Shown piece by piece: positions 25,509 to 35,775 of a DNA stretch of 36,438 nt. The DNA comes from Bryobacterales bacterium. GTDB taxonomy: Bacteria > Acidobacteriota > Terriglobia > Bryobacterales > UBA6623. Under the pieces are notes generated by a model, which saw only the letters and a list, made by a program, of their open reading frames with translations, ran no database searches and had not been told where the DNA came from. The stretch lies in assembly GCA_022824585.1 (NCBI GenBank), contig JAJDZN010000102.1, positions 1 through 36,438 of the forward strand. The letters are read 5' to 3'. The translations under genes were made by a program, and so were the position numbers. Each line of letters opens with the position of its first letter. The stretch's first letter is position 1.

Positions 25509-28205
25509 ATGCGGCCCAAAATCAGGCTTGCGCCCTCAGTCCGGCAACTGGCCGGAGTCGCCGTTATGGCCGGGCTGGCACTGGCGGGTCAGAACCTCAA
25601 CGGAGAATCTGGCGAATCCGGCTCGTCTGAGGCGGCCGCAGAACTGCGCGCAGAGTCTGCTCCCGAAACTCAGGATGCGCTCCTCGACGAGGAATCCGAG
25701 GGCAACCGCGAGCGTACGGAGCTGAACCTGCTCGGCGAGGTCGACAGCGAAGCTGGCGAGAGCCGCCGCAACGAAAACGTCCGGCTGACGCTGATCGACA
25801 ACAACGTCCTGAAGGAAATCAACATCCGCATGGGAACCACCGCGACAATAGTGCGCGAGTTCGATTCGGCAAGGGGCTACTTCGGCACCGAGTTTGGCAA
25901 CCCGGCCAGCCGGCCGATGCACCTTCGCCCGTCCACGGGGCGCAACTTCCACGGCTCGTTCCACGAAACTCACGGCAACAGCGTTTTCTCGGCTCGATCG
26001 TTCTTTCAAGTCGGAGCGGTCCAGCCCGCGAACTCGAACGACTTCGGCATGCAACTGACTATGCCGTTGCCGGGCGAGTCTGCGTTCTCGGTCGAGCTAA
26101 ACCACCAAAGAAACCGCGGCAACGTCAACGGCAACGTCTTGATGCCCCTGCCCGAGGAGCGAGTTCCGCTCGCGACAGATCCCGATCTGCGAGCGATCGT
26201 CTCAGAGATCCTAGGGTCGTACCCAGACGAGGCGCCCAACCGGCCCGACATCAATCCTCGCGCGCACAACACCAACGCTCCGCAAGTGATCCACAACGAT
26301 ATTGTCGGCGGGCGCTACGACCTCCCCCTGGGCGAAAACGACAGGCTGGCCTTGGACTACCGGTTTCGCAAGCAGAACGTGGACGCCTTCCAACTCGTCA
26401 GGGGTCAGAACCCCAACACAACCACCGGCTCCCACGACGGACGCTTCACTTGGAACCGGGCTTGGTCCCCGCAGACCTCCACCGATTTCTCAGCCGGATT
26501 CCGCCGCACGACCTCGCTGATCGTGCAGGACGAAACGGCCTTGGGCCCGCTGTTCTTCATGGGCAGGCAATTGCAGTCCCTCGGCGGCTCGAGCAGCCTT
26601 CCTTATGACCGCGTGCAGAACTTCTTCCGCTATGCCGGGACCGTTAGCACGACCCGCGGCAATCACAGAGTCGTGGCGGGCTTCGGCCTGACGCGCGAGC
26701 AACTCAACGGGATCGAGAGCTCCGGTCACCTGGGGATGGTGATGTTCACCGCCAACTTCGGGCGAGACATGATGACCAACCTGCGCCTGGGCACGCCGAC
26801 CCGCGTCACGCAGTCGATTGGCATGACCCACCGAGGCTTTCGGCGCTGGCGAATGCAGTATTTTGCCGGGGACACTTGGAAGGCCGCTCGGAACCTGACG
26901 CTGGATTTCGGGCTGCGCTTCGAGCCCGCCACCAGGCCGGTCGAGGTCAACGGGTTCTCCGACCTCCCGTTTCGCTGCGACTGCAACAATTTCGCACCGC
27001 GCTTCGGCTTCGCCTACCGCACCAAGCTGGGCGTCCTGCGAGGCGCGTACGGCACCCACTTCGGCGAGATCTTCACCGCCACGTACACGCAAGAACGGTT
27101 CAACCCGCCTGGCAACATCCGCGTCAACGTCTTGGCGCCTAACCTGCTGGACCCGTTGGCCGGCGTCAACTTCGACACCACCGATCCCAAGGTGCGCAGC
27201 ACCATAGTCCAGATCGATCCGGACTTGGTCGCCCCCTACTCGCACCACTACAACTTCAGTTGGATCGTCTCCAGCTCGCGGGGCGTGTTCGCAGAATTGG
27301 GCTACCTCGGGAGCCGCTCGCATAGGCTCATTGCCGGCTGGTTCCTGAACCGAGCCCGCAGCGTCGACGGCGTCCCGACGACTATCAGGACAATCAACGA
27401 CCGCCGCCCGGACCAGCGCTACTACGACATCCGCCGCATTCTCAACGGCTCGCGCGGATATTTCGACTCGGCCAAGGCCACGGTCGGGCTGCGCGATGTC
27501 GGCGGACTGACGATGGATTTCTCCTACTGGCTGAGCAAGGCGATCGATCTCGGGGCGCACTACGCCAGCAACGCCAGCTCGCGCGATGCGTTCTACGGCC
27601 GCAGCCAGACCGAGGACGACGTCCATGGCGATGTCAAGTCCCTGAGCGACTTCGACCAGCCGCACGCCGCGCTGGGAAGGGTCACCTACCTCACTCCTCG
27701 GATCGGTTCTGCGGGAAGCACCCTGGACAGGGCTCTGGGTGGCTGGTCGTTGTCCTCTGTGCTGCTGCTGAAGACCGGCACGCCGTTCCTGATGTATACC
27801 GGCTCGGACGGCCCAGGTTTCGGCAACGTCGATGGCGCAATGGGTGACCGACCAAACCTGCTCGACCCGTCGCTGATAGGCCGCAGGATCGACCATCCCG
27901 ACACCTCCCGGCAGATGATGCCGCGCTCCGCATTCAGCTATGTCCAAGCAGACCAGAAGAGCGGAAATATTGGCAGGAATGTGTTCCGCAAAGACGCCAT
28001 CCAGAATCTCAACCTGTCACTGTCGCGCAGTTGGAAGATCGCCGGCGAGAGCACCCTGATGTTCCGCGTGGAGTCGATCAACCTCTTCAACACGCCGCAG
28101 TTCGCGTTTCCGGGCAACGAACTCACCGGCGGCAATTTCGGGCAGATCACCAACACCCTCAACGATGGCCGCACGTTCAACCTCGCTATGCGGCTGTCTT
28201 TCTGA
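25509..28205 (+). CDS. TonB-dependent outer-membrane receptor, acidobacterial type, without carboxypeptidase-like domain
   Basis: From the ATG at 25509 (898 residues; an ATG at 25422 lacks a signal). A signal peptide (SVRQLAGVAVMAGLALAGQ) is followed by an acidic, low-complexity stretch (about 35-95). A short plug-like part comes next (LTLIDNNVLKEINIRMGTT, ARGYFGTEFGNP, then RNFHGSFHETHGN with ARSFF), and from about residue 170 an extended beta-barrel with alternating strands (FFRYAGTVSTTRGNHRV, NNFAPRFGFAYRTKLG, LGYLGSRSHRL). It ends in Phe, as outer-membrane barrels do. Acidobacterial relatives usually carry an N-terminal carboxypeptidase-regulatory-like domain; it is missing here and the plug is short. 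It should import a bulky substrate with TonB energy. It lies upstream of the A-B cassette on the same strand, so it may feed the quinoprotein system. Confidence 0.85.
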   Translation: MRPKIRLAPSVRQLAGVAVMAGLALAGQNLNGESGESGSSEAAAELRAESAPETQDALLDEESEGNRERTELNLLGEVDSEAGESRRNENVRLTLIDNNVLKEINIRMGTTATIVREFDSARGYFGTEFGNPASRPMHLRPSTGRNFHGSFHETHGNSVFSARSFFQVGAVQPANSNDFGMQLTMPLPGESAFSVELNHQRNRGNVNGNVLMPLPEERVPLATDPDLRAIVSEILGSYPDEAPNRPDINPRAHNTNAPQVIHNDIVGGRYDLPLGENDRLALDYRFRKQNVDAFQLVRGQNPNTTTGSHDGRFTWNRAWSPQTSTDFSAGFRRTTSLIVQDETALGPLFFMGRQLQSLGGSSSLPYDRVQNFFRYAGTVSTTRGNHRVVAGFGLTREQLNGIESSGHLGMVMFTANFGRDMMTNLRLGTPTRVTQSIGMTHRGFRRWRMQYFAGDTWKAARNLTLDFGLRFEPATRPVEVNGFSDLPFRCDCNNFAPRFGFAYRTKLGVLRGAYGTHFGEIFTATYTQERFNPPGNIRVNVLAPNLLDPLAGVNFDTTDPKVRSTIVQIDPDLVAPYSHHYNFSWIVSSSRGVFAELGYLGSRSHRLIAGWFLNRARSVDGVPTTIRTINDRRPDQRYYDIRRILNGSRGYFDSAKATVGLRDVGGLTMDFSYWLSKAIDLGAHYASNASSRDAFYGRSQTEDDVHGDVKSLSDFDQPHAALGRVTYLTPRIGSAGSTLDRALGGWSLSSVLLLKTGTPFLMYTGSDGPGFGNVDGAMGDRPNLLDPSLIGRRIDHPDTSRQMMPRSAFSYVQADQKSGNIGRNVFRKDAIQNLNLSLSRSWKIAGESTLMFRVESINLFNTPQFAFPGNELTGGNFGQITNTLNDGRTFNLAMRLSF

Positions 28206-28427: not shown

Positions 28428-29258
28428 ATGTTGCGCAGGACATTGTCCGGAGCCTCGATAGCTGCCATGGCATTGCTGTGCAGTGCGCCGGGAACGCCCG
28501 CGTCCGCCCAGTATGCCGCTGCACGCACGCCCGATGGCAATCCTGACCTAAACGGCATCTGGCAGGCGATGGGGTCGGCGCACTGGGACTTGGAAGACCA
28601 CGCGGCCCGCCATGGGCCGGTCGAGGCACTCGGCGCGCTCGGGGCGATACCCGCCGGGCTCAGCGTGGTCGAAGGCGGCACGATCCCGTACCAGCCTTGG
28701 GCCGCCGAGCAGCGCGCGAAAAACTTGGAGAACTGGCTAAAGCTCGATCCAGCGGTGAAGTGCTTCATGCCGGGCATCCCTCGGGCCACCTACTTGCCGC
28801 TTCCGTTCCAGATCGTCCAGACGCCGACAAAGATCCTGTTCGCCTACGAATTCGGTGGCAACAGCCGAATTGTATGGCTGGACCGACCCGACAGCGAAGC
28901 TCTCGCCCCTTCGTGGATGGGCTATTCGTTGGGTCGGTGGGAAGGCGAAACGCTGGTCGTTGACGTGACTGCGCAGGTGGCCGACACTTGGTTTGACAGT
29001 TCAGGGAATTTCCACAGCGAAGAGCTCCGCGTGGAGGAGCGATACACCCGGACGGGGCCTAACACGCTCCGCTACGAGGCCACCATCGAGGATCCCAAGG
29101 TGTTCACCCGTCCGTGGAAGATCAGCATGCCGCTGTACCGGCGCCTCGAGCCCAACGCGCAGATTCTCGAGTTCAAGTGCGTGCCGTTCGCCGAGGGCGC
29201 CACCTACGGACACCTCAGCCGGGATGCCGAGGCATCGGAGGCCGAACCCGAGGACTAG
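28428..29258 (+). CDS. cassette protein A1: secreted protein of an uncharacterised acidobacterial family
   Basis: A 276-residue protein from the ATG at 28428, with a signal peptide (LSGASIAAMALLCSAPG, cleaved near SAQ). It begins ARTPDGNPDLNGIWQAMGS, then DPAVKCFMPGIPRATYLPLP with PFQIVQTP, GRWEGETLVVDVT, a TWFDSSGNFHSEEL block, YEATIEDPKVFTRPWK and LEFKCVPF. A second copy (33248) matches it over its whole length, and the C-terminal half also aligns by eye with protein B (GRWEG-x-TLVV, ERFTR, DPESF, PW). I cannot name a family or reaction. Two Cys (in KCFMPG and FKCVPF) are conserved between copies. It is exported, and it lies 15 bases upstream of B1, as A2 does upstream of B2. Confidence 0.8.
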   Translation: MLRRTLSGASIAAMALLCSAPGTPASAQYAAARTPDGNPDLNGIWQAMGSAHWDLEDHAARHGPVEALGALGAIPAGLSVVEGGTIPYQPWAAEQRAKNLENWLKLDPAVKCFMPGIPRATYLPLPFQIVQTPTKILFAYEFGGNSRIVWLDRPDSEALAPSWMGYSLGRWEGETLVVDVTAQVADTWFDSSGNFHSEELRVEERYTRTGPNTLRYEATIEDPKVFTRPWKISMPLYRRLEPNAQILEFKCVPFAEGATYGHLSRDAEASEAEPED

Positions 29259-29273
29259 AAGAGGAGACGAGCC

Positions 29274-30371
29274 ATGGCCCACGCCAGCGATCACACAGTG
29301 CGTTTCACCAAATGGATGCTGCGCACCTGCGCGTTGCCGACCAGCGCGCTGCTGCTGGCGGCGCTGCCAGTGACAGTCCTTGCGGCCGACCCGCCGACCA
29401 CGAGCTGGGGCGCGCCCGACCTGCAAGGCACGTGGGACTTCCGTTCCATCACTCCGTTCGAGCGCCCGAAGGAACTCGCCGACAAGGAGTTCCTCACGCC
29501 CGAAGAGGCCGAGGCCTGGGAGAAGCGCACGCTTGACGCCAGCGCCGCTCGGCGCAATCGAGACCCGGTCCAGGGACAGGGGGACGTGGATGTCGGCTAC
29601 AACGCCTTTTGGCTGGACCGAGGCGAGAAGATGACCGGGACGATGCGAACCTCTCTGGTCGTCGATCCGCCGGACGGCCGGATACCGGCCCTGACCGACC
29701 TCGCCAAGCGGCGCTCGGATGAGCGCTATGCCCGCTGGGGCGGCGTCCCGTCCGGCCCCGAGGATCGGAACCCCCTGGAGCGTTGCATCGTGGGCTTCAA
29801 CTCCGGCCCGCCCATGAATCCGGGCGCTTACAACAATTTCGCGGAGATCTTCCAAACGCCGACGTACGTCGCCATTCTCAACGAGATGATCAACGACCAC
29901 CGCATCATCCCGCTCGACGGAAGGGACCACGTTCCGGAGAACATGCGCTTCTGGAAGGGCAGCTCGCGCGGCCGCTGGGAAGGCAACACGCTGGTCGTGA
30001 CGACCAAGAACTTCACCAAGCACACCAACTTTCGCGGCTCGGGCCCCAACATGGTCCTCACTGAACGCTTCACTAGGACATCGCAGGAAACGCTGCTCTA
30101 CGAGTACACCATCGATGACCCCGAATCGTTCGAAGCTCCTTGGTCGGTGGCGGTGGAGATGAAGAATTCGTCCGACCCGCTGCTGGAATACGCTTGCCAC
30201 GAAGGCAACCGCGCCATGACCCTGATGCTCTCCGGAGCCCGCGTGCGGGAACAGAAGGGCCAAAGCGCCGACGACTGGCTGGCTTCTTGGTACGGCGGTG
30301 CAAAGGCGGCCAAGGCCGCTAAAGAAGCCGTGGAAAGCGAAGGGGCAGCCGCCCCGGACGACGAGAATTGA
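29274..30371 (+). CDS. cassette protein B1: secreted paralogue related to A
   Basis: A 365-residue protein with a ribosome binding site (GAGGAGA) and a signal peptide (LRTCALPTSALLLAALPVTVLA). It opens with TSWGAPDLQGTWDFRSITPFERP and continues with SLVVDPPDGRIPALT, ERCIVGFNSGPP, YNNFAEIFQTP, a PLDGRDHVP segment, GRWEGNTLVV, NMVLTERFTR, DDPESFEAPWS and YACHEGN. It matches B2 (34103) along its length, apart from a C-terminal Ala/Lys/Glu tail of about 40 residues found only here. Family members are widespread in Acidobacteriota without an assigned role. Its stop (TGA 30369-30371) abuts the stop of C1 on the other strand (TCA 30372-30374), forming TGATCA. Confidence 0.82.
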   Translation: MAHASDHTVRFTKWMLRTCALPTSALLLAALPVTVLAADPPTTSWGAPDLQGTWDFRSITPFERPKELADKEFLTPEEAEAWEKRTLDASAARRNRDPVQGQGDVDVGYNAFWLDRGEKMTGTMRTSLVVDPPDGRIPALTDLAKRRSDERYARWGGVPSGPEDRNPLERCIVGFNSGPPMNPGAYNNFAEIFQTPTYVAILNEMINDHRIIPLDGRDHVPENMRFWKGSSRGRWEGNTLVVTTKNFTKHTNFRGSGPNMVLTERFTRTSQETLLYEYTIDDPESFEAPWSVAVEMKNSSDPLLEYACHEGNRAMTLMLSGARVREQKGQSADDWLASWYGGAKAAKAAKEAVESEGAAAPDDEN

Positions 30372-30818
30372 TCAGGGACGCTTCGGCTCGCTGGGGTCCG
30401 CACCGTCGCGGGGCGCGCCGGTCCCGGATGAGCCCATGAAGAGCTTGCGCCCGTCCTGAAACGTGATGTCGCGACCGCTGCCCTTGCAGTTCGGATCGCA
30501 CAGCCTGTCCTTGCTCTGGTAGCCACGCACCGTCACCGGCGTCCCGGGCACCAAGAGCGTCTTGGTGAGCCCGCGCCGCAGGAGGGTGTTGGGCGTGCCC
30601 GCCTCGAGTTCCCACGTCAGCGTCGCGCCATCTTCGCGCTCCATCCTCACGTGGACCCATGCATGGGGGTTGATCCACTCGACCATGACCACCTTGCCGA
30701 TCACCCTGATCGGCGCGTTGGCATCGAACTCGGCGGAGAACGCGTGGTGCGCGTAAGCGCACGGAACGATCGCCAGCACAGCGGTCAACAGCAGCGCGGA
30801 AACAGCGTTGCGAATCAT
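30372..30818 (-). CDS. cassette protein C1: DUF6152 family exported protein
   Basis: A 148-residue protein from the ATG at 30818, with a GAGGAAGGG ribosome binding site. The signal peptide ends CAYA, so the mature protein should begin with His24-His25 (HHAFSAEFDANAP). Other marks are VEWINPHAWVHV (His52, His56), GTPNTLLRRGLTK, VTVRGYQSKD, RDITFQDGRKL and FMGSSGTGAPRDG. C2 (35341) has the same pattern. C1 alone has a small insert with two Cys (RLCDPNCKG). DUF6152 proteins are small periplasmic beta proteins of unknown role. An N-terminal His after cleavage together with inner His residues suggests metal binding, but that is inference. It lies 77 bases downstream of the quinoprotein gene on the same strand. 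Confidence 0.85.
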   Translation of the reverse strand: MIRNAVSALLLTAVLAIVPCAYAHHAFSAEFDANAPIRVIGKVVMVEWINPHAWVHVRMEREDGATLTWELEAGTPNTLLRRGLTKTLLVPGTPVTVRGYQSKDRLCDPNCKGSGRDITFQDGRKLFMGSSGTGAPRDGADPSEPKRP

Positions 30819-30895
30819 CGACCCTTCCTCGTCCTGTCCCATGCGGACCACTAAGAGTATATGCGACCCGCCACCGGGCGGGGCTGCGGACTTGC

Positions 30896-33010
30896 CTATT
30901 GACCGGACGTTTCGCGGTCGATGTTGGCCCGCGAGATGATGTACTGCCGGATCAGTTCCGTCTCGGTCTCGTTTAGGTCGTTGCCAAAGCTGTCCATGCC
31001 AAGATCCAGCAGCAAGCCTTCCCGCACGACTTTCTGGAAGGCGTCGTGGATGGCGTGGCTCATCAGGCGGAGGTCGGCATTGCGGTAGCCGCGCGCTCCG
31101 TAGCCGTGGCACGAGGCGCAGAACTGGTGATAGAGCGTCTCGCCTTGGGCCAATTCCTCGGTTGACGCTGTCATCGCCGGTTGCTTCGGAATCGACCTGT
31201 CGCGCAATGGCGGTTGCGGCAGAGCATGATCCGCGCCGAGCGAGAACACGAGCAGCTTGCCGAAATCGAGATAGGCAAAGCTGGCGCCGACCACTACTGC
31301 CACGTATTGCGTATTGCCGACTTGGTACGTAACGGGAGGAGCGATGATCGAGCCGTAGGCGTCGAACTCCCAGAGCCGCTTGCCAGTGTCGCTGTTGTAG
31401 GCCGATAGCGTCCCGCTTCCGTCACCTTGGAAGACAAGCCCGCCGGCAGTCGAAAGCACGCCTCCGATCCGCGCGGTCTCGTTCTGCACCTTCCAGACGG
31501 TCTCCCCGGTGAGCGGGTCGAAAGCCTTGAGAAACCCCTTTGGCTCAGGCCGCTCCCCCGCTTCTTCGATGAGCTTCGTGCGATCGGCACCCATCGCAAC
31601 GCCCAAGTTCATGGTTCGCTGGCGCGGGCGGTAAACGCCGGTCTCGCGATAGTCCTTCGGGAGGGCGAAAAAGAACGGCGTGTCGTGCGTCGGGATGTAC
31701 ATCAGGCCCTTGGCGGCGTCAAACGACATCGGCTCCCAGTTGTGCGCGCCCGTGTTTCCCGGCAGGATCCATTGTGGCTCCTCCTCCCACACGACATCCG
31801 GATTCTCGACCGGCCGCCCCGTCTCCATGTCGACGTGGGTGGCCCACGTCATCGCGCCGTAGGGATGCGCCCTGAGGAGCTCGCCATCGCTGCGGTCCAA
31901 TACGTAGAAGAACCCGTTCTTGGGCGCCTGCATGAGCACCTTGCGGTCTGCTCCGTCGACCTCCATGTCAGCCAAGACCATGTCCTGCGTCGCCGTGTAG
32001 TCCCAGTTGTCGCCGGGGGTGGTCTGGTAGTACCACTTCATCCGGCCGGTCTCGGGGTCTAAGGCCACGACCGACGACAGGAAGAGGTTGTCACCGCCTC
32101 CGGGCGAGCGGATCTTGCGCGACCACGGCGTGCCGTTGCCCACGCCGATGTAGACCGTGTGCAAGTCGGCGTCGTAGGTCATGCTGTTCCACACCGTGCC
32201 GCCGCCGCCAAGCTTCCACCATTCGCCGTTCCAAGTCTCGGCCGCCATCTCCATCTCGGGATGCTCGAACGGCATGGAGGGATCGCCCGGCACGGTGAAG
32301 AAACGCCACTCCTTCTCGCCTGTCTCGGCGTTGTAGGCAGTCACGTAGCCGCGGTGGTCCCACTCCGAGCCGCTGTTGCCGATGAAGACCTTCCCGGCGG
32401 CGGCTAGCGGAGCGCCGGAAATGGTGTACGGGACCCGGGACGGGTAATCGTCGGTGGCCACATCCCACACCTTCTCGCCCGTCCGGGCATCGATCGCCAC
32501 CAGGCGGGCGTCAAACGTAGCCGTATAGACCCGGTTCCGGTACACCGCCACGCCCCGATTGATCGGCCCGCCGCAGCACGACCAGCGAGCGCGTGTGCGC
32601 TGGGTCTTGGGGTCGAACGTCCAAATCGTCTCCCCCGTATCGGCGTCGACTGCCGATACAACGCTCCAGCTGTCGGTGACATACAGGACGCCATCCGCCA
32701 CGATCGGAGACGATTGCAAGCGATGGCGAACCTCAATCTTGCGCGTCCAGTTCAAGCCGAGGTCGCGAACGGTCCGGCGGTTGATCTGGTCGAGCGGGGA
32801 AAAGCGGTGCTGGCTGTAGCCGCGTCCGTACGCCAGCCACTGTCCGGGATCGTTGTCGTCGATCCTGTCGATCCGCTCGTCATCGACACGCCCAGCGGAT
32901 GGCTGGCTTGTGGAACTCTGCGCGGAAGCCGTGGCAACGCAGCACGCTAGCGCCATCGCAAGACCGACGAAACCGCGCTTGGGGGACAAGAGGCTCGACG
33001 ATAGGTCCAC
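30896..33010 (-). CDS. PQQ-dependent dehydrogenase with C-terminal cytochrome c domain (quinohemoprotein)
   Basis: A 704-residue protein from the GTG at 33010, which places the signal peptide (RGFVGLAMALACCVATASA) at the N-terminus; a longer frame to 33085 adds only an unrelated Arg-rich stretch. The eight-blade propeller shows LAYGRGYSQHRFSPLDQI, the vicinal Cys pair (Cys145-Cys146 in WSCCGGPINRG) that packs on PQQ, and GDNWDYTATQD with the catalytic Asp. The position two residues after that Asp is Thr, not the Asp typical of lanthanide enzymes, so a calcium enzyme is likely. CASCH (631-635) binds heme c, with Met672 a possible sixth ligand. It oxidises an alcohol, sugar or aldehyde in the periplasm. 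Copies of A, B and C flank it. No pqq biosynthesis gene is in the window. Confidence 0.9.
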   Translation of the reverse strand: MDLSSSLLSPKRGFVGLAMALACCVATASAQSSTSQPSAGRVDDERIDRIDDNDPGQWLAYGRGYSQHRFSPLDQINRRTVRDLGLNWTRKIEVRHRLQSSPIVADGVLYVTDSWSVVSAVDADTGETIWTFDPKTQRTRARWSCCGGPINRGVAVYRNRVYTATFDARLVAIDARTGEKVWDVATDDYPSRVPYTISGAPLAAAGKVFIGNSGSEWDHRGYVTAYNAETGEKEWRFFTVPGDPSMPFEHPEMEMAAETWNGEWWKLGGGGTVWNSMTYDADLHTVYIGVGNGTPWSRKIRSPGGGDNLFLSSVVALDPETGRMKWYYQTTPGDNWDYTATQDMVLADMEVDGADRKVLMQAPKNGFFYVLDRSDGELLRAHPYGAMTWATHVDMETGRPVENPDVVWEEEPQWILPGNTGAHNWEPMSFDAAKGLMYIPTHDTPFFFALPKDYRETGVYRPRQRTMNLGVAMGADRTKLIEEAGERPEPKGFLKAFDPLTGETVWKVQNETARIGGVLSTAGGLVFQGDGSGTLSAYNSDTGKRLWEFDAYGSIIAPPVTYQVGNTQYVAVVVGASFAYLDFGKLLVFSLGADHALPQPPLRDRSIPKQPAMTASTEELAQGETLYHQFCASCHGYGARGYRNADLRLMSHAIHDAFQKVVREGLLLDLGMDSFGNDLNETETELIRQYIISRANIDRETSGQ

Positions 33011-33053
33011 TGCTCGGTTCCGGCCGCCGCCGGCGCACGGCTGCCGGGCAGAG

Positions 33054-33059
33054 AGTATA
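33054..33059 (-). promoter_or_regulatory. -10-like box for the quinoprotein gene
   Basis: TATACT on the minus strand lies 43 bases before the GTG at 33010, so the message would have a leader of about 35 bases. This 237-base divergent gap also holds the TAGACT box for A2 on the other strand. I see no gene in it. Confidence 0.35.
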
Positions 33060-33234
33060 GCGCAGGCTGGCCGGCTCCATCGCAAATCCGGCAGCGTGCC
33101 GCCGACTCAGGAGCAGACCGGCCTCGAGCCTGCTCGGGCGGAAGGAGACCGCCAGGCCCCGGCCAAGGCCCCCATGGGGCGACGAACTGGCTGATTCCTG
33201 CGGTGCCCGGTTCCGCTCCGGCCCGAATCGGTAG

Positions 33235-33240
33235 TAGACT
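33235..33240 (+). promoter_or_regulatory. -10-like box seven bases before the A2 start
   Basis: TAGACT is followed by CTTCAAA and the GTG at 33248, with TTCCGC 18 bases upstream as a weak -35. No ribosome binding site fits, so this is a likely leaderless start. It argues for GTG 33248 over the ATG at 33203. Confidence 0.4.
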
Positions 33241-33247
33241 CTTCAAA

Positions 33248-34087
33248 GTGTTGCACGTGATTCGACCCCACGCCCGATCCCAGTCTGCCAGCGCGCTGGT
33301 CACTGCGGGGACTCTCTGCTTCTGCCTGGTGCTGGTGGCAGCGGGCGGGCTTGCGCAAGACTATCAAGCCCCGCTCACCCCCGATGGGAACCCGAACCTG
33401 AACGGCATCTGGCAGGCCCTGGGCTCAGCGAACTGGAATATCGAGGGCCACTCGGCCGAAGCCGGGCCGGTCGTCAACATGGGCGCTCTGGGCGCGGTTC
33501 CCGGCGGGTTGGGCATCGTGGAGGGCGGCGAAATCCCCTACCAACCCTGGGCTCTGGAGAAGCGGCTGCAGAACAAGGCGGACTGGATCAAGCTGGATCC
33601 GGTCGTCAAATGCTACATGCCCGGCGTGCCGCGCGCCACCTACATGCCCTTCCCATTTCAGATCGTCCAAACGCCGGACCACATATTGATCGCGTACGAG
33701 TTCGCCAGCGCGTCGCGGGTGGTCTACATGAACCGGCCGGACTTCGAGCATCCCGGCGACGCGTGGATGGGGCACTCGCGGGGCCGCTGGGAAGGGCAGA
33801 CGCTGGTGGTGGATGTCACCAACCACGTCGCCGACACGTGGTTCGACAGCGCTGGAAATTTCCACTCCGAGTCGCTGAAGGTAGTCGAGCGCTACACGCC
33901 CACCGGCCCGAACCACCTCTTGTACGAGGCCACTATCGAAGACGAGAACGTGTTCACTCGGCCGTGGAAGATCAAGCTTCCCCTCTACCGGCGCATGGAC
34001 GAGAACATGCAGCTGCTCGAATTCAAGTGCGTGGAGTTCGTCGAGGAGATGATGTACGGACACTTGCGCAAGAAGGAAACGGAATGA
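33248..34087 (+). CDS. cassette protein A2: second copy of the A family
   Basis: From the GTG at 33248 the product has 279 residues and a signal peptide (ASALVTAGTLCFCLVLVAAGGLAQ). The frame from 33203 would put 15 residues in front of it. The body repeats A1: PLTPDGNPNLNGIWQALGSA, DPVVKCYMPGVPRATYMPFP, PFQIVQTPDHI, GRWEGQTLVVDVT, TWFDSAGNFHSESL, YEATIEDENVFTRPWK, LEFKCVEF. Most of the protein is close to A1 by eye, so these are recent or strongly constrained paralogues. It ends MMYGHLRKKE. AGGAGG for B2 follows the stop. It diverges from the quinoprotein gene. Confidence 0.82.
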   Translation: MLHVIRPHARSQSASALVTAGTLCFCLVLVAAGGLAQDYQAPLTPDGNPNLNGIWQALGSANWNIEGHSAEAGPVVNMGALGAVPGGLGIVEGGEIPYQPWALEKRLQNKADWIKLDPVVKCYMPGVPRATYMPFPFQIVQTPDHILIAYEFASASRVVYMNRPDFEHPGDAWMGHSRGRWEGQTLVVDVTNHVADTWFDSAGNFHSESLKVVERYTPTGPNHLLYEATIEDENVFTRPWKIKLPLYRRMDENMQLLEFKCVEFVEEMMYGHLRKKETE

Positions 34088-34102
34088 CCTAGGAGGTTCG
34101 CC

Positions 34103-35101
34103 ATGACACATCGGGGCTTAGTGCTGGCATCAGTCGCAGCCCTCGTGGCTGCTCCGCTGGTGGCGGCCGACGCCGCCGGGGAACAGCAGGAGTGGACTCC
34201 CCCTCGCACGGCTTGGGGCGCGCCCGATTTGCGCGGCGTGTGGGACTTTCGGACCATCACGCCGCTGGAGCGACCCGCCCGGCTCGGCGAGCAGGATGTC
34301 TTCAGCGACGAAGAGGCCGCCGAGTTTCGCGTCGAAGAACTGGGGCGCCGCAACAAGGACCGTCGAGCGTCCGACGGCATCTCGGCCGAGCAGGACGTGC
34401 GCAACGCCTACAACCAGTTCTGGTGGGACTACGGCAACGAACTCACCGAAGACAAGCGCACGTCGCTGATCGTGGATCCGCCAAACGGCAGGATCCCGGC
34501 CATGACCGAGCCAGCCCGGAAGCGCTACGCGGGGATCCGCGCCGCTCGGGCGCGAGAGCCGCACGGCCCGGAGGACCGGGGCGTTGCCGAGCGCTGCATC
34601 CTGGGCTTTAACGCCGGGCCGCCGTACACGCCGAGCGCGTACAACAACAACGTCCATATCTTTCAGACACCGGGCTACGCGGTGTTGCTGATCGAGATGG
34701 TCAACGACGCCCGCATCGTGCCGCTGGACGGTCGGGACCACCTGCCAAGTCACATGCGCCAGTGGCGCGGCGATGCGCGCGGACGCTGGGAAGGCGACAC
34801 GCTAGTGGTCGAGTCGCGCAACTTTACGGACAAGACCTCCTACCGCGGGACAGGGCCGAACATGGTGCTGACCGAGCGGTTCACGCGAGTGGCGCCAGAC
34901 AGGGTCGTATACGAATACACGATCAGCGACCCCGAATCGTTCGAACAGCCGTGGTCGGCGGCCATACCCATGAAGAAGACCGACCAGCCGATGTTCGAAT
35001 ACGCCTGCCACGAGGGCAACTACAGCATGTTCACGATGCTGGAGGGAGCGCGCGCGGCGGAGCAGGTGGGCAAGCCTCACACGGGATCGAATCTGCCCTG
35101 A
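34103..35101 (+). CDS. cassette protein B2: second copy of the B family
   Basis: A 332-residue protein with a consensus AGGAGG ribosome binding site and a signal peptide (GLVLASVAALVAAPLVAADA). Family blocks match B1 in order: TAWGAPDLRGVWDFRTITPLERP, SLIVDPPNGRIPAMT, ERCILGFNAGPP, YNNNVHIFQTPG, PLDGRDHLP, GRWEGDTLVVESRNF, NMVLTERFTR, SDPESFEQPWS, YACHEGN. It lacks the Lys/Ala/Glu tail of B1. The 15-base gap to A2 is the same as that of the first pair, which supports duplication of an A-B unit. The role is unknown; it is exported. Confidence 0.83.
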   Translation: MTHRGLVLASVAALVAAPLVAADAAGEQQEWTPPRTAWGAPDLRGVWDFRTITPLERPARLGEQDVFSDEEAAEFRVEELGRRNKDRRASDGISAEQDVRNAYNQFWWDYGNELTEDKRTSLIVDPPNGRIPAMTEPARKRYAGIRAARAREPHGPEDRGVAERCILGFNAGPPYTPSAYNNNVHIFQTPGYAVLLIEMVNDARIVPLDGRDHLPSHMRQWRGDARGRWEGDTLVVESRNFTDKTSYRGTGPNMVLTERFTRVAPDRVVYEYTISDPESFEQPWSAAIPMKKTDQPMFEYACHEGNYSMFTMLEGARAAEQVGKPHTGSNLP

Positions 35102-35312
35102 TTCGGCCGCGACAGGGAGCGTTCGCTCGATGGCAAGCATGGAGACGCAGGTCTTGCCCGTGCGGCTCGCCGATAGCGCGCCAGGCTCTGGCGAGGTTCC
35201 GTTTGGAAGGCGAGTGACCGGGCTCTTGCGGCGTTCCCGCGCTCTCATTTGTCAATCGGGGTCGCCAAGCGTCGGATTGTCGCTCGCTGACCCGCTCGCA
35301 GGCCCGTTAGGG

Positions 35313-35318
35313 TAAACT
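35313..35318 (+). promoter_or_regulatory. possible -10 box in the 239-base gap before C2
   Basis: TAAACT lies in GGGTAAACTG, 28 bases before the ATG at 35341, with the strong GAGGAGAGAAGG ribosome binding site between. C2 could therefore be transcribed on its own as well as with A2-B2. The rest of the gap (35102-35310) shows no gene or clear structure. Confidence 0.3.
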
Positions 35319-35340
35319 GCAACCGAGGAGAGAAGGCAAC

Positions 35341-35775
35341 ATGTCCAAAGGCGCCGCAAGCATCTGCGTCAACATCATCGTGATCGCCCTGTTAGCCGCA
35401 GCGCAACTGCTGGCCCATCATGCGTTCTCGGCCGAATTCGACGCTAACCGGCCCGTTCAGCTCAAGGGCACCGTGACCAAGATGGAGTGGATCAACCCGC
35501 ACGCTTGGATTCATATCGACGTGACGATGGAAGACGGCGAGGTCGAGCAGTGGATGATCGAGGGCGGCACGCCAAACACCCTCTTCCGTCGCGGCTTTAC
35601 CAAGCAATCCCTGCTGCCGGGCACGGTCATCATGGTCGATGGCTACCAAGCCAAGGACGGCACGCAAAAGGCCAACGGTCGCGACCTGACATTTGAGGAC
35701 GGCACGCGGCTGTTCATGGGGTCGTCCGGCACTGGCGCGCCTCGGGATGGAAGGGATCCGACCGAGCGGCGCTAG
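35341..35775 (+). CDS. cassette protein C2: DUF6152 family exported protein
   Basis: A 144-residue protein with a strong ribosome binding site. The hydrophobic signal (ICVNIIVIALLAAAQLLA) is followed at once by His26-His27 (HHAFSAEFDANRP), so the mature N-terminus is again His-His. MEWINPHAWIHIDV (His54, His58), GTPNTLFRRGFTKQ, VDGYQAKDG, RDLTFEDG and FMGSSGTGAPRDG match C1 closely, without the two-Cys insert. Alignment by eye shows strong conservation across nearly the whole mature protein. It follows B2 on the same strand after 239 bases and has its own promoter-like box. The function is not known; a periplasmic metal-binding or redox-partner role is inferred from the His pattern and the neighbouring quinohemoprotein gene. 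Confidence 0.87.
   Translation: MSKGAASICVNIIVIALLAAAQLLAHHAFSAEFDANRPVQLKGTVTKMEWINPHAWIHIDVTMEDGEVEQWMIEGGTPNTLFRRGFTKQSLLPGTVIMVDGYQAKDGTQKANGRDLTFEDGTRLFMGSSGTGAPRDGRDPTERR

What the first reader, a model, noticed from the sequence alone, without database searches (positions are those of the whole stretch)
28428..35775. Duplicated three-gene secreted cassette (A-B-C) around a PQQ quinohemoprotein
A1-B1 and A2-B2 are parallel gene pairs with identical 15-base gaps, and each pair has a DUF6152 partner (C1, C2). In copy 1 the C gene is inverted and sits downstream of the quinoprotein gene; in copy 2 the order is A-B-C. All six small proteins are exported and none has a known role. A conserved set kept twice beside a periplasmic dehydrogenase suggests one functional system, perhaps substrate binding and electron or metal handling for the dehydrogenase, with the TonB receptor supplying substrate.
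Basis: partly seen in the sequence, partly recalled or inferred. Interest (0 to 1): 0.72.

Follow-up and report, generated by a model that had tools for sequence, protein, structure and literature searches.

The report
Exported gene trio with membrane partners
Two copies of a trio of exported proteins of unknown function belong to a larger envelope system, with a pair of membrane proteins, that recurs in distant bacteria; the neighbouring alcohol dehydrogenase looks like an optional partner rather than the core.

Summary
In detail: two parallel A-B cassettes, each with a DUF6152 partner. Corrections: A and B are homologous to each other; the cassettes are two old lineages side by side, not a local duplication. 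New: a tandem pair of small membrane proteins (DUF6644; D1, D2) belongs to the set. Over 247 genomes of the phylum the 31 with DUF6152 are exactly the 31 with DUF6644 over cut-off, 30 of them with A/B. Seven Gammaproteobacteria/Pseudomonadales loci show A-B-C-D1-D2 in one direction; a 369-genome check in that class was weaker. C is a predicted OB fold with His-His at the predicted mature N-terminus in 129 of 129 sequences; B has a calycin-like barrel. Best reading: a periplasmic metal (probably copper) and ligand-handling redox system with a membrane hub. The system is well supported; its chemistry is inferred.

The parts
28428..29258 (+). A1: exported protein of the A family, with the C-terminal domain it shares with B
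   Evidence: ORF; 62% to A2, homologous to B1 and B2; A-family HMM 455 bits
29274..30371 (+). B1: exported protein of the B family, 15 bases after A1
   Evidence: B-family HMM 480 bits
30372..30818 (-). C1: DUF6152 protein, convergent with B1 and just downstream of Q on the same strand
   Evidence: PF19649 98.3 bits, cut-off 27
30744..30749 (-). His-His codons of C1, the predicted mature N-terminus
   Evidence: HH in 129 of 129 nonidentical C sequences of at least 90 bits, -1/-3 cleavage rule met in 122 of 129
30896..32956 (-). Q: type II quinohemoprotein alcohol dehydrogenase (PQQ propeller plus cytochrome c domain); stays with copy 1 in relatives, not part of the general core
   Evidence: TIGR03075 569.7 bits; PF01011, PF13442; 1kv9 E 5e-195
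33248..34087 (+). A2: exported protein of the A family (start uncertain, other in-frame starts possible)
   Evidence: A-family HMM 469 bits
34103..35101 (+). B2: exported protein of the B family, 15 bases after A2; its predicted C-terminal barrel is calycin-like
   Evidence: model pLDDT 83.5, Foldseek
35341..35775 (+). C2: DUF6152 protein, predicted OB fold
   Evidence: PF19649 116.5 bits; model pLDDT 87, Foldseek
35416..35421 (+). His-His codons of C2 (residues 26-27), the predicted mature N-terminus

Best explanation
The cassettes are two units of a conserved envelope system made of A, B and C plus a tandem pair of small membrane proteins D1 and D2 (DUF6644), and in many Acidobacteriota loci also a cytochrome c'-like protein E. 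SHOWN by computation: A, B, C and D co-occur across genomes and often sit together; C is a predicted OB fold that starts with His-His after predicted signal cleavage; B has a calycin-like barrel, and A shares that domain by sequence; D1 and D2 form a heteropair, sometimes fused, with a conserved His in the first membrane segment. INFERRED: C uses its N-terminal His-His (perhaps with the conserved NPH-x-W-x-H/Y motif) to hold a metal ion in the periplasm, copper being most likely; A and B bind a small hydrophobic ligand or substrate in their barrels; D1/D2 are the shared membrane hub that takes up the metal or passes electrons between the membrane and the periplasmic proteins (to E where present). 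Each A-B-C set would serve its own ligand, which would explain why some genomes have 19 or more C matches but mostly few D genes (four or fewer DUF6644 matches in 17 of 22 genomes). The quinoprotein here is a client or local companion of copy 1, not the heart of the system.
For: Co-occurrence: C over cut-off in 31 of 247 genomes, D over cut-off in 31 of 247, the same 31, A/B at E <= 1e-10 in 31 with 30 shared; these 31 lie in 8 families by the tool's labels. Class of G257, 369 genomes: D at E <= 0.001 in 4 (2 over cut-off), all among the 8 with C, and adjacent to C in three. D in 23 of 24 genomes that host A loci titled outside Acidobacteriota (24 of 35 such loci given); one of these is the same genome as G237 of the phylum, so 22 of 23. 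Neighbourhood: 55 of 60 C with A/B within 1.5 kb; 33 D genes in those 60 regions against 1.3 expected; a D gene within 4 kb of a listed C in 17 of 22 C-bearing genomes (read by eye); A-B-C-D1-D2 in one direction in L179-L183, L185, L186. Fusions: C-A, Q-B, D-D. Distance congruence A-B 0.84, A-C 0.73, B-C 0.75 against a permutation maximum of 0.27. C: HH 129 of 129, -1/-3 rule 122 of 129; OB fold. B: calycin hits. D: first-segment His in 61 of 63 rows, the other 2 gapped, one D1-type and one D2-type gene in 26 of 31 loci. E: CXXCH in 32 of 32. N-terminal His as a natural metal chelator, in some families fused to a membrane permease: PMC12537917 (outline, passages and section 8 part 1 read).
Against: No metal, ligand or redox activity is shown. 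In the class of G257, four of the 8 genomes with C (all weak hits, 32 to 42 bits: G355, G377, G394, G479) show no D, two of the four D hits (G484, G602) are below cut-off, and G257 itself was chosen because it holds an A locus. His-His lies in a low-confidence stretch of the C model (block pLDDT 64) and a 19-residue strand separates it from NPH, so a single brace site is not established. D does not match E. coli YebZ of the CopD family by profile comparison, and its CopD/DUF2214 Pfam hits are below cut-off; of ten D proteins scanned, 7 are over the DUF6644 cut-off, 2 just below and 1 has no hit. Twelve of 22 best D pairs outside the phylum have no C in the stretch fetched. E is not general: 3 of 30 D regions outside the phylum. 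The calycin match is fold-level only (best E 1.5e-3, target TM about 0.5). G171 has C and one D but no A/B; G080 (75% complete) has A/B only. Genome co-occurrence P values ignore shared ancestry.
Confidence: 0.5

Rival explanations
1. Accessory set of the quinoprotein: A, B and C bind substrate or metal, or carry electrons, for the periplasmic PQQ dehydrogenase.
For: Q stays beside copy 1 in seven close relatives and in the more distant L047 with the same C-Q order; 9 of the other 69 A-centred loci hold a Q hit of at least 200 bits; a natural Q-B fusion; 22 of 22 genomes checked have a TIGR03075 match at E <= 0.001, 16 over the cut-off.
Against: Only 6 strong quinoproteins in 60 C regions, 2.3 expected; 10 of 60 regions hold a Q-HMM hit of at least 200 bits, 5 with one within 1.5 kb of A, B or C; no quinoprotein at the third cassette. 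PQQ-type matches number 2 to 59 per genome at a loose threshold that also rings in 9 of 14 control genomes, so presence says little.
Confidence: 0.12
2. Copper capture and import like CopC/CopD: C is the periplasmic copper binder, D1/D2 the membrane importer, and A/B shuttle the metal or a metallophore.
For: N-terminal His after predicted signal cleavage, membrane partner with a conserved His, weak CopD and DUF2214 hits; CopC/CopD-type import in YcnJ (PMC13344008, abstract and section list seen).
Against: No CopC match for C; no profile match of D to YebZ; 19 or more C matches in some genomes is a lot for one importer; E and the calycin barrels are left unexplained.
Confidence: 0.25
3. Linked but independent exported proteins that expanded together in lineages with large secretomes; no common machine.
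For: A/B are expanded (9 members here; more first-look candidates elsewhere); 5 of 60 C have no A/B near; 12 of 22 best D pairs outside the phylum have no C near.
Against: Exact agreement of C and D over cut-off in 247 genomes including same-class negatives, gene order kept across phyla, fusions, distance congruence.
Confidence: 0.1

Closest known systems
CopC/CopD (YcnJ, YobA-YebZ) periplasmic copper binder and membrane partner
   Same: Small exported protein with a mature N-terminal His, and a membrane partner with a conserved His, encoded together
   Different: C is a predicted OB fold with no CopC match; D has no profile match to YebZ; A/B barrels and many C copies have no counterpart there (recalled)
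N-terminal-His metalloproteins found by signal strapping: DUF4198, DUF6702, Ang-1/Ang-2 with HupE/UreJ permease (PMC12537917)
   Same: N-terminal His after the signal peptide; Ang domains are fused to a membrane permease
   Different: The passages seen describe beta-sandwiches (DUF6702, anglerases) and a divergent fold (DUF4198); DUF6152 is a predicted OB fold and is not named in the main text
Calycins (fatty-acid-binding proteins, lipocalins, avidins)
   Same: Predicted barrel of B, and by homology of A
   Different: No sequence relation to solved members (only two weak hits, E 0.45 and 0.53, for B); invariant Cys pair and an added N-terminal region
Type II quinohemoprotein alcohol dehydrogenase (1kv9)
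   Same: Q itself
   Different: A, B and C are not known parts of that enzyme (recalled); most sampled cassettes have no such gene beside them

Membership tests
DUF6152 (PF19649) | Pfam profile above the curated cut-off | tested here: met
   C1 98.3 and C2 116.5 bits, cut-off 27
DUF6644 (PF20349), partner D in the same genome | Pfam profile above the curated cut-off | tested here: met
   C156:5455-5907 80.6 bits, C156:5959-6348 30.1 bits, cut-off 27
CopC | CopC profile match | tested here: not met
   no CopC among Pfam hits at E <= 1 for C1 or C2
CopC-like or histidine-brace metal site | mature N-terminal His | tested here: met
   HH 129 of 129, cleavage rule 122 of 129; a recalled rule of thumb, no signal-peptide program, cleavage not observed
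CopC-like or histidine-brace metal site | second ligand close to the N-terminal His, and metal bound | not testable with these tools
   no coordinates available; N-terminal stretch low in confidence
CopD | profile relation of D to CopD | tested here: not met
   Pfam CopD E 0.043 and 1.2 in 2 of 10 D proteins, below cut-off; hhalign to YebZ probability 0.1, a single-sequence target, so a weak test
Calycin superfamily (B, and A by homology) | eight-strand up-and-down barrel | tested here: inconclusive
   top PDB matches are SAHS, retinol-binding and fatty-acid-binding proteins, with streptavidin lower down; best E 1.5e-3, none at E <= 0.001; no sequence match
Cytochrome c' (PF01322), partner E | profile match and C-terminal CXXCH | tested here: inconclusive
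   CXXCH 32 of 32, 8 of 9; PF01322 the top hit in 9 of 10, only 1 over cut-off
PQQ alcohol dehydrogenase type II (Q) | family score, PQQ propeller and cytochrome c domain | tested here: met
TonB-dependent receptor (gene 25509-28205) | plug domain | tested here: not met
   only PF25183 at E <= 1

The most novel reading that the evidence does not exclude
A new class of periplasmic mono-metal (copper) redox units: C carries a metal at an N-terminal His-His on an OB fold, A and B are paired calycin substrate binders that give each unit its specificity, and a D1/D2 membrane pair (with a cytochrome c' in some lineages) powers or loads all units in the cell, with quinoproteins as one kind of client.
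Probability: 0.13. Interest if true: 0.85.

Novelty: new variant of a known kind. Interest (0 to 1): 0.6.

Why it matters
Two families marked unknown in Pfam (DUF6152, DUF6644) and one without a Pfam or NCBIfam model (A/B) appear to form one system, found in records titled Acidobacteria, Gammaproteobacteria, Pseudomonadales and Gemmatimonadetes, with 19 or more C matches in some genomes. That gives each of them a testable function and, if the N-terminal His reading is right, adds an OB-fold member to the N-terminal-His metalloproteins. It also shows that the quinoprotein next door is a weak guide to function.

Tried and rejected
Local tandem duplication: rejected. In all three families copy 1 and copy 2 are each closer to counterparts in other genomes than to each other, and in chromosome OY282420 the two types (L047, L041) lie about 0.5 Mb apart. 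Equal 15-base gaps as evidence: set aside (rough because starts are called automatically). TonB receptor as part of the system: rejected. D as a proven CopD: rejected for now. E as a core part: rejected, since it is largely an Acidobacteriota feature. A common neighbour of D pairs that lack A-B-C: none stood out (best 5 of 89, NIPSNAP). Sequence relatives of A, B or C in the PDB: none at E <= 1 for A and C; for B only two weak hits (E 0.45 and 0.53) that I set aside. Paper searches for DUF6152 and DUF6644 returned nothing. Three wider searches were seen as listings only; none of the titles and abstract starts listed describes the A/B family or DUF6152. The sponge-symbiont search and the CopD search were read as listings only; of the latter one paper was opened.

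Limits of the counts: the A-centred loci are the best 80 of 441 matches (76 loci), so they lean to close relatives. The 60 C-centred regions were picked by hand from the listed matches (a capped list), spread over 21 genomes (one genome standing for the ten of genus g71), not drawn at random. Distances are between stop-to-stop frames, so they run short. One search kept C frames of at least 90 bits and one per identical C-terminal 90 residues; weaker ones such as the C64 copy of this genome (60 bits) were left out. In one search the observed 6 and the list of handles were read, whose listing stops at 346 bits. The 17 of 22 for D beside C rests on capped lists read by eye, so it is a lower bound. 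In the neighbour census 120 of 236 near and 120 of 151 far genes were scanned, 89 of the 92 listed. The D counts compare my own HMM (observed) with Pfam counts (expected). Some D regions end at a contig end.
Full report
OBSERVATION. Both A-B gaps are 15 bases. C1 and C2 are DUF6152. The gene between the cassettes scores as a type II quinohemoprotein alcohol dehydrogenase. The arrangement is A1-B1 facing C1-Q, then A2-B2-C2 diverging from Q. A and B have no family in Pfam or NCBIfam at E <= 1 but are homologous to each other over about 125 residues. Gaps in 66 A-B pairs of relatives range from -59 to 270 bases (automatically called starts, so approximate).

HOW OFTEN THE TRIO OCCURS. The window's own genome has four DUF6152 matches and nine A/B-family matches, including a third set A-B-C-B on contig C260 with no quinoprotein in the 20 kb fetched. 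A scan of the genome-contig collection with an A alignment gave 441 confirmed matches; the best 80 (76 loci) come from records titled Bryobacterales, other Acidobacteria, Gammaproteobacteria, Pseudomonadales, Gemmatimonadetes and a few others. HMMs built from these show B near A in most loci, often followed by C: in the A-centred loci, window and own-genome stretches together there are 68 same-strand A-B pairs, 54 of them with C within 1.2 kb of B, 42 of those on the same strand.

THE TEST FROM THE OTHER SIDE. I took 60 DUF6152 places from the list, covering 21 genomes of the phylum. 55 of 60 have an A/B gene within 1.5 kb, 50 of 60 on the same strand; five have none in view (L121, L129, L151, L152, L161). 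Ten of 60 regions hold a Q-HMM hit of at least 200 bits, five with one within 1.5 kb of A, B or C. PQQ-dehydrogenase-like matches are common in these genomes (2 to 59 each at E <= 0.001, a loose threshold). At the 346-bit limit of the listing, 6 fall in the regions against 2.3 expected (P = 0.03). Among the A-centred loci, Q of at least 200 bits is present in seven close relatives at the same place and in 9 of the other 69. So the link A-B-C is strong and the link to quinoproteins is weak outside the window's own lineage, though not nil.

TWO OLD CASSETTES, NOT A DUPLICATION ON THE SPOT. Copy 1 and copy 2 share 65% (A), 54% (B) and 53% (C) identity. Beyond near-identical relatives, copy 2 is nearest to L033, L034 and L032, copy 1 to L030, L032 and L047, in the same order for A, B and C. 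L041 (copy-2 type) and L047 (copy-1 type, with the same C-Q order) lie about 0.5 Mb apart on one chromosome. Distances are congruent: Spearman 0.84, 0.73 and 0.75, permutation maximum 0.27; shared species history contributes to this.

THE MISSING PARTNERS. A Pfam census of 120 genes beside C cassettes found DUF6644 in 16; it is not among the 25 families shown for 120 genes farther away. With an HMM of my own, 31 loci carry it, 30 of them with at least two genes, and the 60 C-centred regions hold 33 D genes against 1.3 expected. D proteins have mostly three or four hydrophobic segments by a crude count (54 of 63); the first-segment His is present in 61 of 63 aligned sequences (the other two are gapped there), and the final W and R are present in all 63. 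In 26 of 31 loci the pair is one member with a further His in the third segment (D1) and one without (D2); three loci have both in a single ORF. In the window's genome the pair lies on contig C156. In relative L027, sequence matching the window's end (94% identity) is followed at once by sequence matching the start of C156 (83% over 115 bases, then 96% over 6.9 kb); bases 118-1792 of C156 have no counterpart there. So the window most likely continues into C156; in L027 the pair starts about 4.5 kb past C2. Next to the pair is E, a protein with a C-terminal CXXCH, best matched by cytochrome c' though mostly under the cut-off.

CO-OCCURRENCE. Over 247 genomes of the phylum, DUF6152 is over cut-off in 31 and DUF6644 in 31: the same 31. 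Three more have DUF6644 hits below cut-off (G125, G143, G229). A/B-family proteins (E <= 1e-10) occur in 31, 30 of them shared; the exceptions are G171 (C and one D, no A/B) and G080 (A/B only, 75% complete). The second check is weaker. In the class of G257 (369 genomes), DUF6152 is over cut-off in 8 and DUF6644 at E <= 0.001 in 4 (G257, G484, G545, G602; only G257 and G545 over cut-off). All four are among the 8, and D is adjacent to C in G257, G484 and G545; but four of the eight, all with weak DUF6152 hits, have no D, and G257 was chosen because it holds an A locus. Of 24 genomes behind loci titled outside Acidobacteriota (24 of 35 such loci given), 23 have DUF6644; the miss is G266 (L091). 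One of them, G248, shares coordinates and contig length with G237 of the phylum, so the honest count is 22 of 23. Around the best D pair of 22 such genomes, 10 have C within 4 kb, and in seven (L179-L183, L185, L186) A-B-C-D1-D2 run in one direction; 12 have no C in the stretch fetched. So D is a genome-level partner nearly wherever A-B-C was found, and a next-door partner in many loci, not all.

WHAT THE PARTS LOOK LIKE. C2 is predicted as five strands and one helix (pLDDT 87); its top PDB matches are lysyl-tRNA synthetases, TiaS and single-stranded-DNA-binding proteins (six at E <= 0.001, query TM about 0.4), whose shared part is the OB fold (recalled). All 129 nonidentical C sequences of at least 90 bits have His-His; in 122 the residues before it fit the -1/-3 rule, and the distance to the NPH motif is 26 in 125. 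In the natural C-A fusion (L128) C comes first, keeping the His-His behind the signal peptide. An N-terminal His chelates metal through its amine and side chain (PMC10952591, abstract start seen in the listing; PMC12537917). B2 is predicted at pLDDT 83.5 with a C-terminal barrel whose PDB matches are SAHS, retinol-binding, fatty-acid-binding and avidin folds; the scores are modest. A and B alignments each have two invariant Cys, perhaps a disulfide (inference).

MECHANISM. I commit to a periplasmic metal and ligand-handling redox system with a shared membrane hub D1/D2. Shown: the co-occurrence, neighbourhood, fusions, export signature of C, predicted folds of B and C. Inferred: metal binding by C, copper as the metal, ligand binding by A/B, transport or electron transfer by D, and the quinoprotein as client. 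D failed the one direct CopD comparison I could make (against a single sequence), so I do not file it as CopD.

NOVELTY. No paper in the held library names DUF6152 or DUF6644. The nearest published kind I know of is N-terminal-His metal binders paired with membrane proteins, so I rate it a new variant of a known kind, with a more novel reading kept open.

Noticed in passing
L128:5860-7134 (-) and L125:13795-17706 (+): Natural fusions: DUF6152 followed by an A/B domain in one ORF, and a quinoprotein propeller followed by a B domain in one ORF.
   Followed up: partly
L193, L194, L205: D1 and D2 (DUF6644) fused in single ORFs of 347-349 residues.
   Followed up: partly
L023:8066-12148 (contig C260 of the same genome): Third cassette A-B-C-B on one strand, without a quinoprotein in the 20 kb fetched.
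   Followed up: partly
window 25509-28205: Outer-membrane barrel gene matches only PF25183; no plug domain found, so calling it a TonB receptor is not supported.
   Followed up: partly
L045 (record VFZL01000002.1): Titled Acidimicrobiia, but its genome G248 gives the same DUF6644 coordinates and contig length as G237, which the tool places in the window's phylum; the title looks wrong.
   Followed up: partly
G187 (same order as the window): At least 19 DUF6152 matches and 14 DUF6644 matches in one 4.3 Mb genome, none of the listed D genes close to a listed C gene.
   Followed up: no
L167-L172, L174, L176-L178: DUF6644 pairs with no A, B or C in the stretch fetched and varied neighbours; they may serve the cassettes at a distance or do something else.
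   Followed up: partly
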